A DNA stretch of 64,000 nucleotides. Source: Methanococcoides orientis. Its GTDB lineage: Archaea; Halobacteriota; Methanosarcinia; Methanosarcinales; Methanosarcinaceae. The translations under genes and the position numbers were made by a program. The notes below the pieces were generated by a model. It was not told the DNA's origin, ran no database searches, and worked only from the letters and a program-made list of their open reading frames with translations. The stretch is from positions 310,001 to 374,000 of the forward strand of contig NZ_CP073710.1 of NCBI RefSeq assembly GCF_021184045.1, read 5' to 3'. Below, one piece after another: positions 9,461 through 47,839 of the stretch. The number at the start of each line of letters is the position of its first letter. Positions within the stretch are counted from its first letter, which is position 1.

Positions 9461-11136
9461 CAGTAAGTCCTCCTCTGTGGCTGGAAGATCGTTATACTAA
9501 CATCTTTGTATTCCAGTCGTGGACCTTCCGGTGCGGGATAGGCGAGTGTGTGCTTTAACCAGTTCTTGTCGTCCCTTTCAAGGAAATCGGTCCTGTAATG
9601 TGCACCCCTGCTTTCTTCACGTACCAATGCTCCTAATGCGATGACATGTGCCAGGTCCAGCATACCCTTAAGCTCGATGGCATTGAGCAGTTCCAGGTTG
9701 AATTCCTTTGCTTCTGTTTTGACCATCAGTGATTTTGCTCTCTCTTCCAGATCTTTGATATCCCTGACTGCCTGCTCGAGTTTGTCGTGTTCCCTGAAAA
9801 CACCCACATTCTCCTGCATGGTCTGTTTCAGTTCCTGACTTATGCTGGAATAGCTTTCTCCATCTTTCCCCATCATTTCAGAAATTGCAGTTCTCTCACT
9901 ATCAAGTGCCCGTTTCAGAGGATCATCGCTCGCTTCTTTCAGTGATGCAACATACTCTGCTGCATGCACTCCTGCTCTTCGTCCAAAGACCACGGTGTCA
10001 AGGAGTGAATTTCCCCCCAGCCGGTTTGCACCATGAACACTTATGCAGGCACATTCCCCAACTGCATATAGCCCGTTAACAGGAGTAGCTCCGTCCTTGT
10101 TCGAGCAGATTCCACCCATTGAGTAGTGTTGTCCGGGCTGTACCGGGATTGGTTCCTCGACCGGGTCAATGCCTATAAAATCGATACAGATCTGCCTGAT
10201 ACCTGCCAGTCTTTCTTCGATAAGGTCTTTCCCAAGGTGGGTGATGTCCAGATGGACATATCCTCCGGGGAATCCTCTTCCCTCCTCGATCTCCTGCTGG
10301 ATAGACCTTGCAACGATATCTCTGGGTGCCAGTTCCATCGATGAGGCTGCGTAGTCTTTCATGAACCTTTCATGGTCCTTATTGTAGAGGTATCCGCCTT
10401 CACCCCTTGCACCTTCGGTGATCAGTATATTAGTGCCCCATAATGTTGTGGGGTGGAACTGTACGAATTCCATGTCCTGGAGTGGTACTCCTGCACGATA
10501 GGCAAGACTTATCCCAAAACCTTTGTTGATGATGGCATTGGTGGATTTCGCGTAGATTCTCCCATAACCCCCGGTGGCAAGTACTGTAGCTTTTGTCTTG
10601 AAAACCTCAAGTTCGGAGTTTAGCAGGTTCATAGCTACAAAACCCAGACATCTGTCATCCTCGATCACAAGTTTTGTTACAAGCCATTCCCTGTAGACCT
10701 TGATGCCGGCACGCAGGACCCTTTCGTGAAGTGTATGAAGAAGGTTGTGTCCGGTCCTGTCCCCTGCATAGCATGTCCTGGGAAATCCTGCACCTCCAAA
10801 AGGACGCTGTGCTATGGTACCATCATCCTTCCTTGAGAAATTGGTACCCCAGTGTTCCATTTCAAGAACCCTGTCAGGGGCTTCTTTACATAATATCTCA
10901 ACAGTGTCCTGGTCGGCAAGATAGTCGCTTCCCTTTACTGTGTCAAATGCATGCGATTCCCAGCTGTCATCGGAGCCAAGGGATGCATTGATACCTCCTT
11001 GTGCAGCTCCGGAGTGGCTGCGTATCGGGGGAACCTTTGAGATGATGGCTACATCCACTCCCTTTTCATGAAGTTCAATAGCACATCTGAGGCCTGAAAG
11101 GCCGCCTCCTATCACTATCACATCATGTGTGATCAT
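9460..11136 (-). CDS. fumarate reductase/succinate dehydrogenase flavoprotein subunit
   Basis: A 558-aa FAD protein of the SdhA/FrdA/TfrA family. It has an N-terminal Rossmann motif VIGGGLSGL, the FAD-attachment region HSGAAQGG, and the substrate-site pattern QFHPTT with later catalytic HGANRLGGNS. It catalyses fumarate/succinate interconversion with the downstream Fe-S subunit. ATG overlaps the fumarase stop by four bases (ATGA type), so translation is probably coupled to fumarase. In methanogens this pair belongs to the partial reductive TCA branch. Confidence 0.93.
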   Translation of the reverse strand: MITHDVIVIGGGLSGLRCAIELHEKGVDVAIISKVPPIRSHSGAAQGGINASLGSDDSWESHAFDTVKGSDYLADQDTVEILCKEAPDRVLEMEHWGTNFSRKDDGTIAQRPFGGAGFPRTCYAGDRTGHNLLHTLHERVLRAGIKVYREWLVTKLVIEDDRCLGFVAMNLLNSELEVFKTKATVLATGGYGRIYAKSTNAIINKGFGISLAYRAGVPLQDMEFVQFHPTTLWGTNILITEGARGEGGYLYNKDHERFMKDYAASSMELAPRDIVARSIQQEIEEGRGFPGGYVHLDITHLGKDLIEERLAGIRQICIDFIGIDPVEEPIPVQPGQHYSMGGICSNKDGATPVNGLYAVGECACISVHGANRLGGNSLLDTVVFGRRAGVHAAEYVASLKEASDDPLKRALDSERTAISEMMGKDGESYSSISQELKQTMQENVGVFREHDKLEQAVRDIKDLEERAKSLMVKTEAKEFNLELLNAIELKGMLDLAHVIALGALVREESRGAHYRTDFLERDDKNWLKHTLAYPAPEGPRLEYKDVSITIFQPQRRTY

Positions 11137-12488
11137 TTACCCACTCCTGTCATGGTGATGGGATCAAGAAGCTTCTCTACGTCTTTCACATCCATTATGT
11201 TCATATCCTTTACCACTTCGATTATGCTCTTATTCTCCCTGTGTGCAGTATGTGCGATCTCTGCCGCCTTCTCATAACCTATGCTTGTTGCCAGTATGGT
11301 GACAAGAGCAAGGCTCTGCTTTGATAGTTCTTCACATCGTTCTCTGTTCACAGTGATCCCCCGAAGGCACCTTTCTGTAAAGGAGATCGATGCACCTGTG
11401 AGGATCTCTATTGAGCTAAGAAGATCATAGGCAAGTACAGGGGTGAATACGTTGAGTTCGAACTGTCCTCCCTGTGCAGCCATTGTTATTGTTGTATCAT
11501 TCCCGATGATCTGGAAACATGCCATGTTAAGCATCTCTGCCATCACGGGGTTCACTTTCCCGGGCATGATGGAAGAACCGGGTTGTATTGCTGGGAGATT
11601 GATCTCACCGATACCTGCTCGCGGACCACTTGAAAGAAGACGTAGGTCATTTGCGATCTTGATAAGGGTCACAGCAATACTTCGCAGTGCACCCGATGCT
11701 CCGAGAATGGCTTCTGCAGACTGTGTGGCTTCAAATGCATTTTGAGCCAGCCTAAAATCCTGGCCTGTGATATGCTCCATCTCTTTTATTGCCAGCTGTC
11801 CGAAATCTTCCGGTGTGTTCAGCCCGGTACCAACAGCAGTGCCTCCCATGTTCAGCTCCTATAGGCCATCAATTGCAACTTCAAGCCGCTTGATCCCAAG
11901 TTCAAGCATATGTGCATACCCGGAGAATTCCTGGCCGAGTGTAACAGGCACTGCATCCTGCAGATGTGTTCTTCCGGGTTTGACGATCTCCATGAACTCA
12001 GCTGACCTTTCAGCAAATACTGTCAGCATTTCCACAAGTGCAGGCATGAGCTCTGAATTAATGGTCTCCACAGCAGCAATGTGAATCGCAGTATGTGTTG
12101 TATCATTTGAGGACTGGGACATGTTCACATGGTCGTTCGGGTGTATTATGTCATAATGTCCCTTTTCAAACCCAAGGATCTCAAGTGCCCTGTTGGCAAT
12201 GACCTCGTTTGCGTTCATGTTCTGTGATGTTCCTGCACCTGACTGGAACGCATCTACCACGAACTGGTCATCGAACTTACCTTCTCTCACCTCGGATGCA
12301 GCTCTGATTATGGCTTCTCCCTTTGTGGTATCAAGCTTTCCGGCTTCCATATTCGCACGTGCTGATGCCATCTTTATTGCAGCCTGTGCTTTGACAAAAG
12401 AAGGGGGCAGCCTCTGGCAGCTGACCTTGAAATTATGAACTGCCCTTGTTGTCTGAGGGCCATAATAGGCATCCTCAGGCACTTCCAC
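11133..12488 (-). CDS. fumC: class II fumarate hydratase interrupted by an in-frame TAG
   Basis: One continuous class II fumarase frame apart from a TAG at 11861-11859. The N-terminal part (209 codons from GTG 12488) has YYGPQTTRA and SSNDT; the C-terminal part has GGTAVGTGLN and the family signature GSSIMPGKVNP. TAG falls in a loop where other fumarases vary. It also creates TAGGAG, a ribosome site six bases before ATG 11849, so the gene could give two polypeptides, one pyrrolysine protein, or be broken. The homologous N-terminus (RLEKDTLGEV) extends upstream to 12518, where the expected ATG is ATC after a run of seven G; GTG 12488 is the first standard start. First gene of the fum-sdhA-sdhB operon. 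Confidence 0.8.
11847..11861 (-). promoter_or_regulatory. TAG codon/ribosome-site junction inside fumarase
   Basis: Minus-strand reading is CTA TAG GAG CTG AAC ATG. The amber codon overlaps an AGGAG Shine-Dalgarno-like element that is six bases from an in-frame ATG. It could therefore act as a sense codon, or as a stop-and-restart point that makes a two-piece fumarase. Confidence 0.6.
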
Positions 12489-25393: not shown

Positions 25394-26260
25394 TCAAAAT
25401 AAGAATATTATAATTGCACCAAGTGCCATTATGGCGGCTCCAAAACCTTTTCTCCGAACATTTGTTTCTTTGAATATCAGCATCCCGAATACCACACTGA
25501 ACAATGCATTAAATCGTTTCACGGAAATGACGTATGGGACTATCTGCATGCTCAATGCAATATTTACTGATACAGCGATCAGGGTTATCACCATGCCTAT
25601 CAGGATGAAAGCGGGCAGATTGTTGACGTATGCGATCTTTATGTTGTCGGGCCTTTTGCATAGGGAGATTACAAGGAACGTTACGCTGATCAGTAAACAT
25701 ACGATCGATGTGCCAAAGAAGATATCTGAATTTAGAACGACCAGCTTGTCGTAGTTCGATGAGATGCTGAACAGGAACGCAACGATCAGCATGTAGAGAG
25801 AACCTCTGTTCCTGAAGATCGCCCTTAACGGGTCTAGCAGCTTTTGCTGGTCAGTGGTAGAATTCAGTACATAAGAACCAGCAACGATCAGCATTATCCC
25901 GAAAATACCCTGTGAGGAGGGAAATTCACTAAGCATGATGAATGATGTTAATATCAGAAAAGCAGGTGTAAAGGAGATCATCGGGACGGTCAGTGAAAGG
26001 TCTGTGATCTTCAGTGCCCTGTATGATAGAACAACGGCTATGACGTTGAGCAGTGTGGTTGAGAAAACAGAATAAAAAAAAGCATCTCCAAGGTCTGGAA
26101 ATCCCTTGAACTAGGAAATGGTGAAGAGGATGACAAAAGCAAAGAAGAAAGTTCCGACCCCAAGAACATACTGGTCAACCTCTTTGAGCATTTTCTTGAC
26201 CAACATAAAGTAAGTGGCGTCAAAAAAAGCACCCAGGACAGCAAAAAGGAACCAGATCAT
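25394..26260 (-). CDS. EamA/DMT-family transporter with one in-frame TAG
   Basis: A continuous 288-residue, ten-helix drug/metabolite transporter if the TAG at 26113-26111 (codon 50) is read as an amino acid. The first 49 codons start MIWFLFAVLGAFF at ATG 26260 and reach the end of the second helix (VILFTIS); then TAG, then FKGFPDLG and the remaining helices, ending IIFLF. Both halves are in the same frame and neither alone makes a normal transporter. There is no ribosome site for a restart: the next ATG, at 25981, is 43 codons on. Candidate pyrrolysine codon or recent nonsense mutation. Confidence 0.78.
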
Positions 26261-30689: not shown

Positions 30690-31419
30690 TTATTTATTCT
30701 TCCCTATCCGTTCTGGTAATGGTGTCATTACTGGCAATTTTGGACTATTATAATTCATGGAATCTCTCTCTAATATGATGTCCGATGTCAAAAGCAAATC
30801 AAAATTTAACTGGAGTGCCTGAGAAAGGTAGTATCGATCGTGAGGGGGGATAAAGTCGATCAACCAGACGCCTCCTTCCTTAAAGGCAGATAGCAGGGTC
30901 TCACCAAGTTCGTCAGCGATACTAATGCGTATTCCTCTGGCACCAAAACTGTTTGTCAGTCCCATGAAGTCCGGGTTCTTGAAAGAGCTATCGAAGGATT
31001 CTCCGAATTTCTGATTGCTTTCCCACTCTATGAGGCCGTAGAATGAATCGTTATAAATAATGATCACAAGATTGCAGTTCAGTCTCACAGCAGTTTCCAG
31101 ATCCTGGAGATTCATAAGAATGCCGGCATCTCCTGCAATTGTCACAACTTTCTTTTCATGGTGTATAAGGCAGACCGATATCTCGGCAGATAGGCCAAAT
31201 CCCATGGAAGCCAAGCTGTTTGACATCAATACGGTGTTAGGGGGCTAGTGCTGGATAGAGTCTTCCGATCCAGAGCTTGTGAGCACCCACGTCGCTGATC
31301 AGGATATCCTTGCGGTTCAGGTTCTGTCGGACTTCCCGGAGGATGTGCTGGGGTTGCTATGGCTGCTCATCAATTGCAAAAACGTTAATTGAAACTGTAC
31401 TGCCGTTCTCTTCTTGTAG
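30690..31419 (-). pseudogene. acetolactate-synthase-like TPP enzyme, truncated and frameshifted
   Basis: Only the C-terminal third of a thiamine-diphosphate enzyme remains. The intact part (31229-30690) has LASMGFGLSAEI and the TPP motif GDAGILMNLQDLETA. Just upstream, SDVGAHKLWIGRLYPALAP is in another frame; a run of five C at about 31240-31244 shifts it. Further upstream the frame has TAG at 31359-31357 (within a QPQHIL context), then double stops before 31419. The N-terminal domains are absent. A degraded gene; its TAG is therefore weak evidence for recoding. Confidence 0.75.
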
Positions 31420-39058: not shown

Positions 39059-41254
<2,196 letters not shown>

Positions 41255-41697: not shown

Positions 41698-44226
41698 TTA
41701 ATTTATCAATGGAAGGTGATTACGTTTGAATTCTTCCACTCCGATCTCCCGAATCCTGTTTATCCAAAGATCTGCCTGTTCTGTGGATATTCCAAAACGT
41801 TTTATTGCTGTCTCTTTAAGAATCCGGTGTTCATTAGCAATAGTTGTGGGGAAAATTCCTGCATCATCAGTGTTGACACATACCTTGATCGGTCCAGTAC
41901 GTAATCCATATTTATTGAATTCTCCCTCTTCTTCAAGAAGTTTGCTTTCGGGAGGATACCAGCGGAAAATAGGATGTTCTTCATATCCTGAAAATCGACC
42001 GATATAAATATTAGAAGATGGACAAGCTTCGACGATAATTCCGATATTATCATATTTTTGGATCAAGTAATCTTGAATTGCTTTGAACAAATGAAGTTCC
42101 TGTTCAGTGATCCAATCTTTTGGTTGATCACTGCTAAAATCAATATCATTATGCCCATCTGAATTTACTTGAATGCATACGATTGTGTGAGCATTCGGTT
42201 TACTATTCTTTGTTTGATTTTTATGATGGTATGTATGTAAATATTTATACCAGAGTTTGTATGCTTCCTTATCATTTGGTTTTTTACCCCTCGTAAAATC
42301 AGGAGCCCAAACATCAGCCTGTTGATTTTGACCCGGTTCAGCAAGTTTCAACGCATAAAGTGGACAGTTACGGCGCAATTCCCAAGCCTTATAAAGCGTT
42401 TCTGGGGATTTAACTTTCTCATACACATATTTAGACAACAATTGTATCTTTTTTTCAATCAACGCAATTATTCCGGCAAATTCGGGTTTTCTTAAAGAAA
42501 CATCGATTGCGTGCTTGTGGCACCATACAAGATTATCTAAATGTTCTACCGCAGGTATATAAATAACACTTTGACTACTTGCCCACGAAAATGGGTCAAT
42601 ACCTAGCGCCAATGCGTGACCAAGCCGATCACCGCTTTTAAATTCACAAAATCTCACAGTTTCATCAATATTTCGTAATCCACTTATCAAGTGACTGTAA
42701 TCTTCACCTGCATGAACTGTAAGATGTGGTATCTTCACTCTCTTATAAGGGTCAGCTAAGCTCTTCTGCTTAGAACTTCTCAACATTCGAATAGCAGGAG
42801 CAAATATTTCGATAGCCAGTTCATTTTCATTACCTGCTATATCAATACCACGTATAAGGTGTGTTAAATTCACATTTTTTGAATCGTTTTGATCGTTTAT
42901 GCGTAAATTTTTATTTTGTAGGTCGGCAGACCCCATTACTCTTTGGACATCATAAACTTCATCGCGTATATTTCGTCTTTTAGTCTCTTGTAATCGATTA
43001 AATCGACTCGATTTTTTTGGTATACCTCTGGTGAAGTGAATTGCAAAGTGTACTCTTCCATCTTTATTGTTTTTGATTATTTTGATAATCTCATTTTTAA
43101 AATCTTTATTTTGAAGATTCTTATAATTGAGTAAGTTTGGTGTAACTTTGTATTCTCTTGATATATTCTCTGCCATATCAGTATCAAATGAGTATGAACT
43201 GTATCTATTGATGTTGTTTCCTTTTCGAGAGGTCAACCTATAAAATTTAACAAAATCGTTTAGTCCAACCCCTGCCATAATCATTTGTGCTCTCAATATA
43301 TTGGCTGTATGCAAATATGCACGTAAGGCAATTTTATAATCTGAATTGCCATTATCATATCGTTCCACATAAAGCAGTGCTGTAATCAACATGAGCCATT
43401 TGTGATCGAGATAAATTGAATCCGATTGTGTTCTTGCAATAAGTTGTTGCGGTATATTATTTGCTTCTATTAATTTGGTGATAGTTGCAAATGAATTTCT
43501 TTTTGGTCGCAAAGAGATTGGATTGGATATTTCTGGTCTGTTTCCTCCCAATGAGAATATTTGCTTGAACATGTATAAGAATAAATTATTCAGAATAAAC
43601 GGTATTTCATCCTGTTTTATTGTATTACTGTTCAAATAACTAAATTCTGGTAACGTTGACCATTGTGTTTTTCCTGAACTTTTATAAGGATCCCATGAAT
43701 AATCAAAAAGTGCAAAGTTTGAACTTCCTGTACCATTAAGATGGGCATGGTTGTCAGCAAATTCTTTTGTTTTATCCTGCTCTGGAAATGCATTTGGACA
43801 TTGTTTTCCATCAAGCTGAGCAAATTGTGCAACCGTCAGTTCCTCATTCCAAAGCAATTCTGCATATTTCCATCCCAATATCCAAACAGGATCGACCTTC
43901 GAAATTAATCTGGACCAGTCATCCAATGTTTTTGGATTTATTTCAACCCGATCTCCCTTATTCTCAAGAAATTCTTCTGAAAGCTTCCCTAGGAAGTTCA
44001 GCGAATACCCTGTAGAGCTCTTATTATCTAGGCAATGCTCAAGAGCAAACGTTTGATCTTCTCTGCGGTGCTGATATGGGTGATAGTCGGCAAGTGCCTG
44101 TTCTGCCACTTGTGGTATCTCTTTCAGAGGGTTTTCGAAAGGTGTTTTTTGTAAAAATATATTTAGCCATCTGTCTGAACGCATAAGTGAAATTGGGGCA
44201 AGATAATTTAGGTTTGTGTCTATCAT
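41698..44226 (-). CDS. rdrB: RdrB, adenosine-deaminase-like effector of a RADAR antiviral system
   Basis: An 842-aa divergent adenosine deaminase. Metal and catalytic motifs: H160xH162 (NHAHLNG), HFTRG in the middle, H505AGE508, SGDRLGHALALG, CPSSN, and N785TDD. Ordinary adenosine deaminases are about 340 aa; the large inserts and overall size match RdrB, which forms a shell and deaminates adenosine in RNA or ATP. It follows the ATPase rdrA after 94 bases on the same strand, the standard two-gene RADAR order. AT-rich like rdrA and unlike its neighbours. It has no internal stop. Confidence 0.88.
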   Translation of the reverse strand: MIDTNLNYLAPISLMRSDRWLNIFLQKTPFENPLKEIPQVAEQALADYHPYQHRREDQTFALEHCLDNKSSTGYSLNFLGKLSEEFLENKGDRVEINPKTLDDWSRLISKVDPVWILGWKYAELLWNEELTVAQFAQLDGKQCPNAFPEQDKTKEFADNHAHLNGTGSSNFALFDYSWDPYKSSGKTQWSTLPEFSYLNSNTIKQDEIPFILNNLFLYMFKQIFSLGGNRPEISNPISLRPKRNSFATITKLIEANNIPQQLIARTQSDSIYLDHKWLMLITALLYVERYDNGNSDYKIALRAYLHTANILRAQMIMAGVGLNDFVKFYRLTSRKGNNINRYSSYSFDTDMAENISREYKVTPNLLNYKNLQNKDFKNEIIKIIKNNKDGRVHFAIHFTRGIPKKSSRFNRLQETKRRNIRDEVYDVQRVMGSADLQNKNLRINDQNDSKNVNLTHLIRGIDIAGNENELAIEIFAPAIRMLRSSKQKSLADPYKRVKIPHLTVHAGEDYSHLISGLRNIDETVRFCEFKSGDRLGHALALGIDPFSWASSQSVIYIPAVEHLDNLVWCHKHAIDVSLRKPEFAGIIALIEKKIQLLSKYVYEKVKSPETLYKAWELRRNCPLYALKLAEPGQNQQADVWAPDFTRGKKPNDKEAYKLWYKYLHTYHHKNQTKNSKPNAHTIVCIQVNSDGHNDIDFSSDQPKDWITEQELHLFKAIQDYLIQKYDNIGIIVEACPSSNIYIGRFSGYEEHPIFRWYPPESKLLEEEGEFNKYGLRTGPIKVCVNTDDAGIFPTTIANEHRILKETAIKRFGISTEQADLWINRIREIGVEEFKRNHLPLIN

Positions 44227-44320: not shown

Positions 44321-47023
44321 TTATAGAATCTTCATGACCTCATCAACTATTTTATCATCCATTACCCAATCATCTATTCCAAGTTCTTCGTTTCTTTTCA
44401 TTAGTTCTGGATATTTTTTATTCCTTGGACCAAAGTAATCTTTGAATTTGAACTCAATTCCCGTATTGCTATATATTTTGGATTCCAATTTTTTAAAACG
44501 ATTTACGAGATTTTTGACTTTGTTTTCACTTAACGTCTTTATTTCATTGATTGAGTACATGCTCAGGGTATTCACAAGTTCCTTGACTTCATTATCATAT
44601 TTGTCCAAAATTGAGATAGATCCAAACTTTAGTATTGTTGGATTATCATTTTCTGCATCAAATAACTCAAAAATAGGGTGATTCCAGATAGCTCTTAATA
44701 ATCGACGATTAAGTGTTTCATTTTTATTTTTATCGTTTGTTTCTTTATCACTACTATCTTTTTCACCAATATATTCAATTATATTTTGTTTTATTGAAGC
44801 GTCTAAGTATTGATACCTTGAATCCATAAGGCTTTCAAAATTAATTGTAATTGCTACATTTTGTTTAACGACTTTATCTGGTTTTAGAAATGATGCAAAG
44901 GCGTTTACTAATACATATTCAAATCGTTTTGTTGCGTATGGCAACGTATCATTTTTGAATACTCCACTAACACGCATTTCATGAAGCTGACTGAATACTT
45001 TGTTCATTACTAATGAAAGTAAATGGCTCAAACCTAATTTTTGTGCTTGATCAAGTGTTGTGGCCCAGTTATTTTCCCATCTTGTAATTTCTTCTGCAAA
45101 TTGTTCAATTGGCTTTTTTTCATTGCCTACATTACTATTTTTATCACATCTATATTTAGTATAAATATTTTCATATTCACTTTCATTTTCTTCATTTTCA
45201 TATTCTATGCTTTTGGTAGGATTGATTGAATAAATTGAATGAAATGGTCTTGTATACAATAAATCTTCTATTGTCCTTATCCAATACTGATTACGTTTGG
45301 ATATAAGGTTAAGATCATCTGTTTTCCTTCCAAGCAATAAACCTTCAGATAATAATTCAAAAGGTTTTCCAAAAAATAGTTGGGCAGTTTTTTGATTAGA
45401 ACTGCTATAATAATTATAATGTGTGAATAGAGATAACATTATTTTTGCATTATTCAAAGGATTCGTTCCATCTTCTCTAGATAGTTCTTCCATTCTTAAT
45501 GTTTCTAATGTAGTTTCCAATGCTCTTTTTGATATGAATAATCCGTAGATAAAAAACTCAACTGGGGGCATACTTTTGATGAGGAACCTCTGTTTATCAT
45601 TAAAATATTCAATAAAAATCTGTTGTTTACTTGCCCAATTTGAAAGATTTGTATTTATTTTCAATAATGCTTTGTTTAGCTTTGTGTAATAATCATATTC
45701 ACGAATTATGTCATTTGATTCTGATTGTTTGAGTACATCAAATAATCTTAATTTACGTAAAGGATGAACTAACAGTTTTTCATCTTGATTTTTACGAATA
45801 TTTCTTAGTAATTGTTCACTTTCTGCTACCAATTGACCGATAGAAACCCCTCTTGCTTCACATAAGGTGGCATAATTATCCCATAATAATTTTGTTTCTA
45901 TGCTCGAATCTTTATTTTCATTTTCGGGAATGGATACACTTGATTTTAAAACTTTAATTGTTTGAATAAGTTCTCTGGGAGTCCTTGGTTCGGGATAGTA
46001 AAAACTAGTTTCTTCACCATTAACTAGTGGACAAACAGCTTTTTTAATATCATTTAGATAACTAGTCACTGGATATCCATTTTCATTATTTGTACGAATA
46101 TATATTGTGTCCATAAGCAAGTTGAGTGGAAATAATGATATTCGTAAATGGCTTGGAAAAACTTTCAACAAGTATTCTTTTGTTAGTTCCTTGTTTTGCG
46201 GGTTGAGAATAGGTCTTCGAATTTCCCAGTTCTGATTTCCTCCATATTGAAAGTGGTCTTGCAATATAGAATAAAACAGTTCATGATTGCCACAGACAAT
46301 TGGCAATATTTTAGGACATGATAATAAACGGCGAATTGTTTCTAATAATTCATGAGTTTTGTTTAATGCCATATCAACATCATCAAATAGTATCACAATT
46401 GCTTTGACATCGAATAATTTGGCACACTCTTCAACAAATTCTTGAAAATGGTGCTCAAGTTGGATTCCAGATTGATAACTAATAATTCGATCTAATCCAT
46501 TCAATTCTTGCTTGTATTCTGTTTGACCTAGTGAATCTGCGAGGTTGTTTAACTTTTTATAATATGAATCTCGATTTTCACTAGTTTCAGAATTTAATTT
46601 TGATTGTACTTGGTTATGCAAATGAGCAATAACAACATTCACAAAATTATCATTGTCGATAAGTAATGTAGGATCAATTATAGGACAGAATTTAAGCTTT
46701 GGAATTTTCTAAGATGGTTTATTTTCATGGGCTTTCTAATTCCAGTATCCTTCAATATTATGTAAAAAAGCAGTTTTGCCAGTTCCTCTTGCACCCGATA
46801 TAAAAATAGCATCATGCATGTGAACTTTGTTTTCATTTTGTTTTTTACTTTTTTTAGTTCTTTCGTCATGCTTTTCAATTTCATTAACACTATCTATTAA
46901 GAATTCACACACTTTATTATATGCATCCTTTTGCCAGAGCTCATTTAATCCCAATTCACGAGCATAATCTCCACTGTCAACATCTAAATATAATTTATCA
47001 TTGGAATCTGAATTATTAACCAT
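44321..47023 (-). CDS. rdrA: RdrA, RADAR ATPase, with two in-frame TAG codons
   Basis: A 900-residue P-loop ATPase if TAG codons 96 (46738-46736) and 105 (46711-46709) are read through. ATG 47023 is preceded by GAGGGA. Walker A GARGTGKT is at 77-84; then ...EGYWN-TAG-KAHENKPS-TAG-KIPKLKF leads directly into IIDPTLL, the typical next motif of this ATPase type, and Walker B ILFDDVD at about 211-217, followed by LPIVCGNHELF. The frame is the same throughout and there is no ribosome site before the next possible start (GTG 46642). RdrA and RdrB together form the RADAR complex. Termination at the first TAG would leave a 95-aa peptide holding only Walker A. Confidence 0.85.
46709..46738 (-). other. 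paired TAG codons in rdrA, candidate pyrrolysine sites
   Basis: Two amber codons separated by eight sense codons (KAHENKPS). They fall in the linker between Walker A and the IIDPT motif, where length and sequence are variable in this ATPase class, so extra residues there are tolerable. Confidence 0.6.
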
Positions 47024-47215: not shown

Positions 47216-47839
47216 TCAGAAGACGCCGAGCAACTTCTTTGCCCAGCCAAGCTTCTTATGTTTCATCTCAGTTACGTTCTCATCGTCAAAATCAAAACCA
47301 ACAAGTGTTATGCTTTCAGCATTGAACTCGGACGCAAGGAAGACGCATCTGTCTCCGTCCGTGAAACCGCCGAAATTGTGGATGTTTGCAAAGGGTTCCG
47401 CCTGGGTGGTGCCGATGACGTTCTTGAACTGTGGGACGTATCTTAGCAGTTTTTCAGTATTGTCGCCATGTGCATGGATGACCATTATCGAACCTTCCTG
47501 ATTTGCCTGGATCTCTTTTTCCACATCGCCATCAAGGTCTGTTACAATTACGTGTGGGACAATACCCTTATCTATCAGGGGTGCTGTGGCACCGTCGGCT
47601 GCTATGATCACGTAGTCTTCTACGTTGACCTCCTTCAGGTCGATCAGGAGCTTTGGAGCATTGCCACAAACAAGGACGTCCTTTCCGCTGATAAGCTCCT
47701 CAAGTGTGTTCGTATCGGCAGTACCTGATCCTATCAATAGATTGGAAAGGAGGATGGCGGAATTCTCATCATCCTCCCTGGAGAAGCCGAAATCCTCAAG
47801 AATCGCGTCATAGATCGGCTCCCACTTTTTAAAATCCAT
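47216..47839 (-). CDS. mptE: 6-hydroxymethyl-7,8-dihydropterin pyrophosphokinase MptE (DUF115)
   Basis: A 207-aa MptE-family enzyme, which activates the pterin for methanopterin synthesis in methanogens. Recognisable parts: VLVCGNAPKLL, IIAADGATAPLIDKGIVPHVIVTDLDGD, VIHAHGDN, GGFTDGDRC and LVGFDFDD. The acidic loop DLDGD probably binds magnesium. It lies 15 bases after ileS and is likely co-transcribed. Confidence 0.92.
   Translation of the reverse strand: MDFKKWEPIYDAILEDFGFSREDDENSAILLSNLLIGSGTADTNTLEELISGKDVLVCGNAPKLLIDLKEVNVEDYVIIAADGATAPLIDKGIVPHVIVTDLDGDVEKEIQANQEGSIMVIHAHGDNTEKLLRYVPQFKNVIGTTQAEPFANIHNFGGFTDGDRCVFLASEFNAESITLVGFDFDDENVTEMKHKKLGWAKKLLGVF

What the first reader, a model, noticed from the sequence alone, without database searches (positions are those of the whole stretch)
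44321..47023. RADAR ATPase rdrA is a full-length gene only if two in-frame TAG codons are decoded
The frame from ATG 47023 to TAA 44321 (900 sense-plus-TAG codons) is interrupted only by TAG at codons 96 and 105. The segment between Walker A and IIDPTLL reads on smoothly, and there is no ribosome site or nearby start after the TAGs, so termination would leave no working ATPase. In pyrrolysine-decoding methanogens UAG is translated. A defence ATPase whose synthesis depends on Pyl-tRNA would be a new form of translational gating of immunity.
Basis: partly seen in the sequence, partly recalled or inferred. Interest (0 to 1): 0.95.

Follow-up and report, generated by a model that had tools for sequence, protein, structure and literature searches.

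The report
Defence gene read through pyrrolysine codons
A methane-making archaeon carries a two-gene antiviral system, probably acquired from bacteria, whose ATPase gene contains two 'stop' codons that this organism almost certainly reads as the rare amino acid pyrrolysine; this looks like ordinary use of its modified genetic code, and there is no evidence that it switches immunity on and off.

Summary
The frame 47023-44321 (-) is a complete 900-codon rdrA interrupted only by TAG96 and TAG105, next to an intact rdrB. The genome has a complete pylTSBCD set. TAG is read as sense in this genus: a fumarase-family gene in the same window has TAG at codon 210 in 7 of 9 congeners (CAG or TGG in the other two), with dN/dS of 0.05-0.09 beyond it. 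Other genes gained private TAGs at positions that are TGG or CAG/CAA in relatives. Genuine TAG stops are about 1% or less of the sampled genes. In rdrA both TAGs lie in the hypervariable loop after the Walker A helix, and random nonsense would give two TAGs only 3-5% of the time. So rdrA is most likely a horizontally acquired bacterial gene, absent from every other phylum genome searched and from the sister species' empty site, that gained or kept TAG as a tolerated pyrrolysine codon. 'Translational gating of immunity' is not supported: no recoding element was found, the cas1 and hsdR matches carry no TAG, and a conserved fumarase-family gene depends on the same decoding. Early decay of rdrA is not excluded. 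Neutral pyrrolysine gain is known (Thg1; a predicted Cas1). I found no earlier report of a pyrrolysine-containing RADAR ATPase.

The parts
44321..47023 (-). rdrA, RADAR AAA+ ATPase, 900 codons read with TAG as a residue
   Evidence: PADLOC RdrA E=3e-125 over 26-838; Foldseek top matches are 8hr8 (RdrA ring) over the whole length; Walker A GARGTGKT at 77-84 and Walker B IVILFDDVDM ending at 218
46736..46738 (-). in-frame TAG, codon 96 (predicted pyrrolysine), near the end of the helix after Walker A
   Evidence: among the 10% least conserved positions; helix 83-100 in the model
46709..46711 (-). in-frame TAG, codon 105 (predicted pyrrolysine), in the length-variable loop before the IIDPTLL strand
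   Evidence: among the 14% least conserved positions
41698..44226 (-). rdrB, RADAR adenosine deaminase, 842 aa, no TAG
   Evidence: PADLOC RdrB E=3e-198; conserved H160/H162, H505, E508, D533 and others intact
47216..47839 (-). MptE-like gene, conserved neighbour on one side of the insertion site
   Evidence: Pfam MptE-like; syntenic in all 9 congeners compared
39059..41236 (-). KatG-type peroxidase, neighbour on the other side; present at the same place in the sister genome, without rdrAB
   Evidence: Pfam peroxidase; L070 synteny
11133..12488 (-). fumarase-family lyase with in-frame TAG at codon 210: internal control for TAG as sense
   Evidence: Pfam Lyase_1 2-329 spans the TAG; TAG in 7 of 9 genus genomes, CAG or TGG in the other two; dN/dS 0.05-0.09 downstream
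25394..26260 (-). EamA transporter with private in-frame TAG at codon 50 (TGG in three relatives)
   Evidence: Pfam EamA spans the TAG

Best explanation
rdrAB is a RADAR antiviral operon (AAA+ ATPase plus adenosine deaminase), probably acquired recently and horizontally from a bacterium by a pyrrolysine-decoding methanogen of the family Methanosarcinaceae, probably a Methanococcoides. In this lineage UAG is a general low-frequency sense codon: Pyl-tRNA(CUA), made by the genome's pylTSBCD, inserts pyrrolysine wherever UAG occurs, without a dedicated signal. Two UAG codons arose, or were kept, in a permissive surface loop of RdrA because a UAG there costs little. Full-length RdrA with pyrrolysine at 96 and 105 is made and works as a normal RADAR ATPase. 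Shown by sequence: the frame, the homology, the pyl genes, sense use of TAG in other genes, the loop position, the empty site. Inferred: insertion of pyrrolysine in RdrA itself, protein activity, neutrality of the two residues, the direction of transfer.
For: Complete frame and full-length homology across both TAGs. Complete pyl set with tRNA-Pyl. TAG ends only 8 of 321 sampled ORFs of at least 150 aa, and in four of those the frame runs on 241-358 codons, into mtmB (twice), a fumarase-family gene and a histidine kinase. Fumarase-family TAG210 is at the same codon in 7 of 9 genus genomes, CAG or TGG in the others, with dN/dS after the TAG (0.05-0.09) like that before it. EamA and SagB-like genes have TAG in this genome where relatives have TGG or CAG/CAA, with downstream dN/dS about 0.2 in most comparisons. 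Both rdrA TAGs fall in the most variable stretch after Walker A. Two TAGs and no TAA or TGA has P of 0.03-0.05 under random nonsense. rdrAB is absent from the other family genomes and the phylum sample and from the MptE-KatG site of the sister genome; GC is 0.30/0.36 against 0.42-0.57 for neighbours. The RdrA/RdrB distance ratio of 1.26 lies within 0.98-1.29 for bacterial pairs.
Against: No proteomics or ribosome profiling. rdrA has no close relative, so selection after the TAGs cannot be measured as it was for the fumarase-family gene. RdrA departs from 8 of 59 otherwise conserved columns (sensor-1 D246N among them) while RdrB departs from 1 of 86, so some relaxation of rdrA is possible. Two TAGs in one gene is 30-50 times the genomic density. 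The nearest relative, a Pseudomonadales MAG without a PylS above cut-off, also has a TAG in rdrA, so rdrA can acquire plain nonsense mutations.
Confidence: 0.75

Rival explanations
1. rdrA is a decaying foreign gene. Two nonsense mutations (or one, with relaxed constraint afterwards) ended its usefulness. Pyl-tRNA may still read them through, but RADAR is not maintained.
For: The gene is strain-specific and AT-rich. It has an excess of TAGs over background, 8 of 59 conserved columns altered against 1 of 86 in RdrB, and a comparable TAG in a non-pyrrolysine relative.
Against: There is no TAA, TGA or frameshift in 900 codons. Two TAGs by chance has P of 0.03-0.05, and both at positions in the least conserved 14%. 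Walker A, Walker B and most of the conserved core are intact. The departures are mostly conservative (L38V, V226L, Y250F) and in line with the overall divergence. rdrB is intact.
Confidence: 0.19
2. Regulatory gating: the TAGs are kept because RdrA synthesis then depends on Pyl-tRNA supply, so immunity follows methylamine use or pyrrolysine status.
For: Both TAGs precede Walker B, so termination gives nothing useful. pylT is dispensable for growth on methanol in M. acetivorans, as reviewed in PMC2933860, so pyrrolysine supply could in principle vary.
Against: TAG is spread over unrelated genes, including a fumarase-family gene fixed across most of the genus. No downstream RNA element. Cas1 and HsdR matches carry no TAG. 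Nothing shows conservation of the rdrA TAGs, because rdrA is unique here. Genuine TAG stops are about 1% or less, which fits constitutive decoding as argued for 'Ca. M. alvus' in PMC4153887.
Confidence: 0.04
3. Re-initiation or split gene: a 95-aa N-terminal piece and a 773-aa C-terminal piece from GTG46642 are made separately.
For: An ORF 44321-46642 exists mechanically.
Against: Neither piece holds both Walker A and Walker B, the GTG lies inside a conserved segment and has no ribosome-site motif, and no relative has a split rdrA at this place.
Confidence: 0.02

Closest known systems
RADAR (RdrA-RdrB) of E. coli, Citrobacter rodentium and Streptococcus suis (PMC9994260)
   Same: Tandem rdrA-rdrB, same fold over the whole length, Walker A and B and deaminase residues
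   Different: Archaeal host; two in-frame TAGs; no SLATT or Csx27-like third gene identified next to it; sensor-1 Asp replaced by Asn
Thg1 of Methanosarcina acetivorans (pyrrolysine gained by neutral evolution; Heinemann et al. 2009, described in PMC2933860)
   Same: A non-methyltransferase gene that acquired in-frame TAG in one pyrrolysine-decoding species; pyrrolysine not essential there
   Different: Thg1 has one TAG in a vertically inherited gene and was physically observed; rdrA has two in a horizontally acquired defence gene and is not yet observed
Cas1 of 'Ca. Methanomethylophilus alvus', predicted to contain pyrrolysine (PMC4153887)
   Same: Defence gene with an in-frame TAG in a pyrrolysine decoder
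   Different: CRISPR adaptation protein, one organism of another order; also untested
mtmB/mtbB/mttB methylamine methyltransferases
   Same: Full-length protein requires UAG translation
   Different: There pyrrolysine is catalytic and fixed across species; in rdrA it sits in a variable loop
The 'Pyl code' (all TAG as pyrrolysine in some archaea; Science 2025, from memory, not in the searchable library)
   Same: General rather than gene-specific decoding, as the data here suggest
   Different: Not verified here; whether this organism or rdrA was in that study is unknown to me

Membership tests
RADAR defence system | RdrA: AAA+ ATPase of about 900 aa with Walker A and B and an RdrA-specific C-terminal domain | tested here: met
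   PADLOC PDLC02217 26-838; 8hr8/8fnt are the best structural matches; motifs
RADAR defence system | adjacent RdrB deaminase | tested here: met
   41698-44226, E=3e-198; conserved His/Asp/Glu residues
RADAR defence system | defence activity, ATP to ITP deamination on infection | not testable with these tools
   needs expression and challenge
Pyrrolysine-containing proteins | host has pylT(CUA), pylS and pylBCD | tested here: met
Pyrrolysine-containing proteins | homology continues in frame across the TAG | tested here: met
Pyrrolysine-containing proteins | TAG functions as sense elsewhere in the genome and genus | tested here: met
   fumarase-family gene, EamA, SagB, mtmB
Pyrrolysine-containing proteins | purifying selection downstream of the TAG in this gene | tested here: inconclusive
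   no close relative of rdrA; RdrA/RdrB distance ratio normal but 8 of 59 conserved columns changed
Pyrrolysine-containing proteins | pyrrolysine detected in the protein | not testable with these tools
   needs mass spectrometry
Programmed recoding with a downstream element (PYLIS-like) | stable RNA structure after the UAG | tested here: not met
   folding z-scores +0.87 and -0.93 for the 100 nt from each TAG
Pyrrolysine gating of immunity | TAGs conserved or shared among defence genes | tested here: not met
   rdrA unique in the family and phylum searches; six Cas1 and two HsdR domain matches without TAG

The most novel reading that the evidence does not exclude
The two UAG codons make RdrA, and so RADAR immunity, conditional on Pyl-tRNA supply, or make the defence gene usable only by pyrrolysine-decoding hosts, and are kept for that reason.
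Probability: 0.05. Interest if true: 0.85.

Novelty: new member of a known kind. Interest (0 to 1): 0.45.

Why it matters
It is a clear case of a horizontally acquired antiviral gene carrying UAG as an amino-acid codon in a pyrrolysine-decoding archaeon. It shows that annotation with the standard code will call such defence systems broken: here it would give a 95-aa ORF and a headless 773-aa ORF. It offers a testable example of how foreign genes adapt to an expanded genetic code. The fumarase-family TAG fixed across most of a genus indicates that pyrrolysine decoding in this lineage is general rather than limited to methylamine enzymes.

Tried and rejected
Viral contigs hold no relative of RdrA by this search. 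A search of 112 family genomes and a 393-genome phylum sample found no second rdrA, so direct TAG-versus-sense comparison and dN/dS for rdrA are impossible. The idea that the donor was itself a pyrrolysine decoder, prompted by a TAG in the nearest relative L026, failed: that genome has no PylS above cut-off. A recoding RNA element after the TAGs: none stands out. A TAG link among defence genes: none in Cas1 or HsdR matches. DDE_Tnp_1 transposases as a further comparison: none in the genome. Re-initiation at GTG46642: rejected, it would lack Walker A.

Full report
WHAT IS THERE. The minus-strand frame 47023-44321 is 900 codons long, opens with ATG after a GAGG-type ribosome site, ends with TAA and contains exactly two stops, TAG at codons 96 and 105. 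Read through, it is RdrA over nearly its whole length (PADLOC E=3e-125, residues 26-838), followed by an intact rdrB (E=3e-198). An AlphaFold2 model of the read-through protein (mean pLDDT 74) matches solved RdrA rings best, over about 840-1010 alignment columns. Walker A (77-84), Walker B (to 218) and the conserved deaminase residues of RdrB are present. The only listed alternative ORF after the TAGs starts at GTG46642 and lacks Walker A.

THE HOST. The genome (one contig, 2.49 Mb; GC 0.43 in a 464-kb sample) has tRNA-Pyl with CUA anticodon and pylS, pylB, pylC, pylD in one cluster. Size, gene content and pylB ending in TAG (as reported for M. burtonii, PMC2933860) suggest Methanococcoides; the genus name is my inference, not a tool result.

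IS TAG A SENSE CODON HERE? In a 464-kb sample, 8 of 321 ORFs of at least 150 aa end in TAG; four of these run on for 241-358 codons, into mtmB (twice), a fumarase-family gene and a histidine kinase, and one more, an F420-hydrogenase beta-type gene, has its TAG inside the Pfam domain. Genuine TAG stops are thus about 1% or less. The fumarase-family gene in this window (11133-12488) is the strongest control: TAG210 is present at the same codon in 7 of 9 genomes of the genus and replaced by CAG or TGG in the other two, and dN/dS after the TAG is 0.05-0.09, the same as before it. An EamA transporter (TGG in relatives) and a SagB-like nitroreductase (CAG or CAA in relatives) have TAG only in this genome, with downstream dN/dS of about 0.2 in most comparisons; the closest SagB pair gives 0.37 on few changes. 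TAG is therefore decoded generally. That the residue is pyrrolysine follows from the pyl genes and established biochemistry.

THE TWO TAGS IN rdrA. Aligned with 28 bacterial homologues, both lie in the hypervariable, length-variable stretch between the Walker A helix and the IDPT strand; they rank in the lowest 10% and 14% of positions by conservation. In the model residue 96 is near the end of helix 83-100 and 105 in the following loop. In E. coli RdrA the crown that docks RdrB carries K150, E151 and R162 (PMC9994260), so the TAG loop, which precedes the IDPT strand, is not the crown. Under random nonsense the chance that both stops are TAG is 0.028-0.046; with the position effect (about 0.02) the joint value is near 0.001, a post hoc figure that assumes independence. 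The 100 nt after either TAG folds no better than shuffles.

ORIGIN. No other genome of the family (112 searched) nor of a 393-genome phylum sample has rdrA. In a genus relative (G019, 93-99% identical neighbouring proteins) MptE and KatG are adjacent without rdrAB; two further relatives have a catalase-like gene of 522 aa at this place, so the site is variable (named from its sequence by eye). rdrA and rdrB have GC 0.30 and 0.36 against 0.42-0.57 for neighbours. Homologues found are bacterial, mostly Gammaproteobacteria, and in both trees the archaeal protein branches off just outside the gammaproteobacterial group. Recent horizontal acquisition is the simplest reading; loss in relatives is not excluded.

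IS IT MAINTAINED? The RdrA/RdrB distance ratio is 1.26, within 0.98-1.29 for bacterial pairs. Against this, RdrA departs from 8 of 59 otherwise conserved columns, mostly conservatively, and RdrB from 1 of 86; TAG density in rdrA is 30-50 times the background; and the nearest relative, in a MAG without PylS above cut-off, has its own TAG. Early decay therefore keeps about a fifth of the probability.

GATING. A genus that keeps UAG in a fumarase-family gene under strong constraint probably decodes it at all times, and a rarity of TAG stops has been taken as a sign of constitutive decoding in 'Ca. M. alvus' (PMC4153887). pylT can be deleted in M. acetivorans growing on methanol (PMC2933860), so gating is conceivable in principle, but nothing here supports it: no element, no conservation, no TAG in the Cas1 or HsdR matches.

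KNOWN OR NEW. Neutral gain of pyrrolysine is documented for Thg1 of M. acetivorans (PMC2933860) and predicted for Cas1 of 'Ca. M. alvus' (PMC4153887). I found no report of a pyrrolysine-containing RADAR ATPase in the papers searched. It is a new member of a known kind.

Noticed in passing
window 11133-12488 (-): Fumarase-family gene with in-frame TAG at codon 210, fixed in 7 of 9 genomes of the genus, dN/dS downstream 0.05-0.09: probably a long-standing pyrrolysine residue in a central-metabolism-type enzyme.
   Followed up: yes
window 25394-26260 (-): EamA transporter with a TAG at codon 50 private to this genome; three relatives have TGG.
   Followed up: yes
L010 15803-16468 (-): SagB-like nitroreductase with TAG42 where relatives have CAG or CAA.
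   Followed up: yes
L010 13928-15571 (-): PAS-GAF histidine kinase with TAG189 inside the GAF domain.
   Followed up: partly
L026 5980-7101: The nearest RdrA relative (Pseudomonadales MAG, 44% identical over residues 8-357) has an in-frame TAG after codon 374 with homology apparently resuming after it, 56 nt before the contig end; its genome has no PylS above cut-off.
   Followed up: partly
window 30690-31286 (-): Short TPP-enzyme C-terminal domain ORF with TAG at codon 14; looks like a remnant or a gene with a wrongly placed start.
   Followed up: no
window 39059-41236 (-), L071 1527-3095, L072 12440-14008: The MptE-DUF373 interval is variable in the genus: KatG-type peroxidase (GC 0.57) in two genomes, a catalase-like gene in two others, nothing in others.
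   Followed up: partly
L012 7428-8594 (-): ORF whose frame ends TAG-Lys-Asp-TAA: a possible TAG stop with a close backup stop.
   Followed up: no
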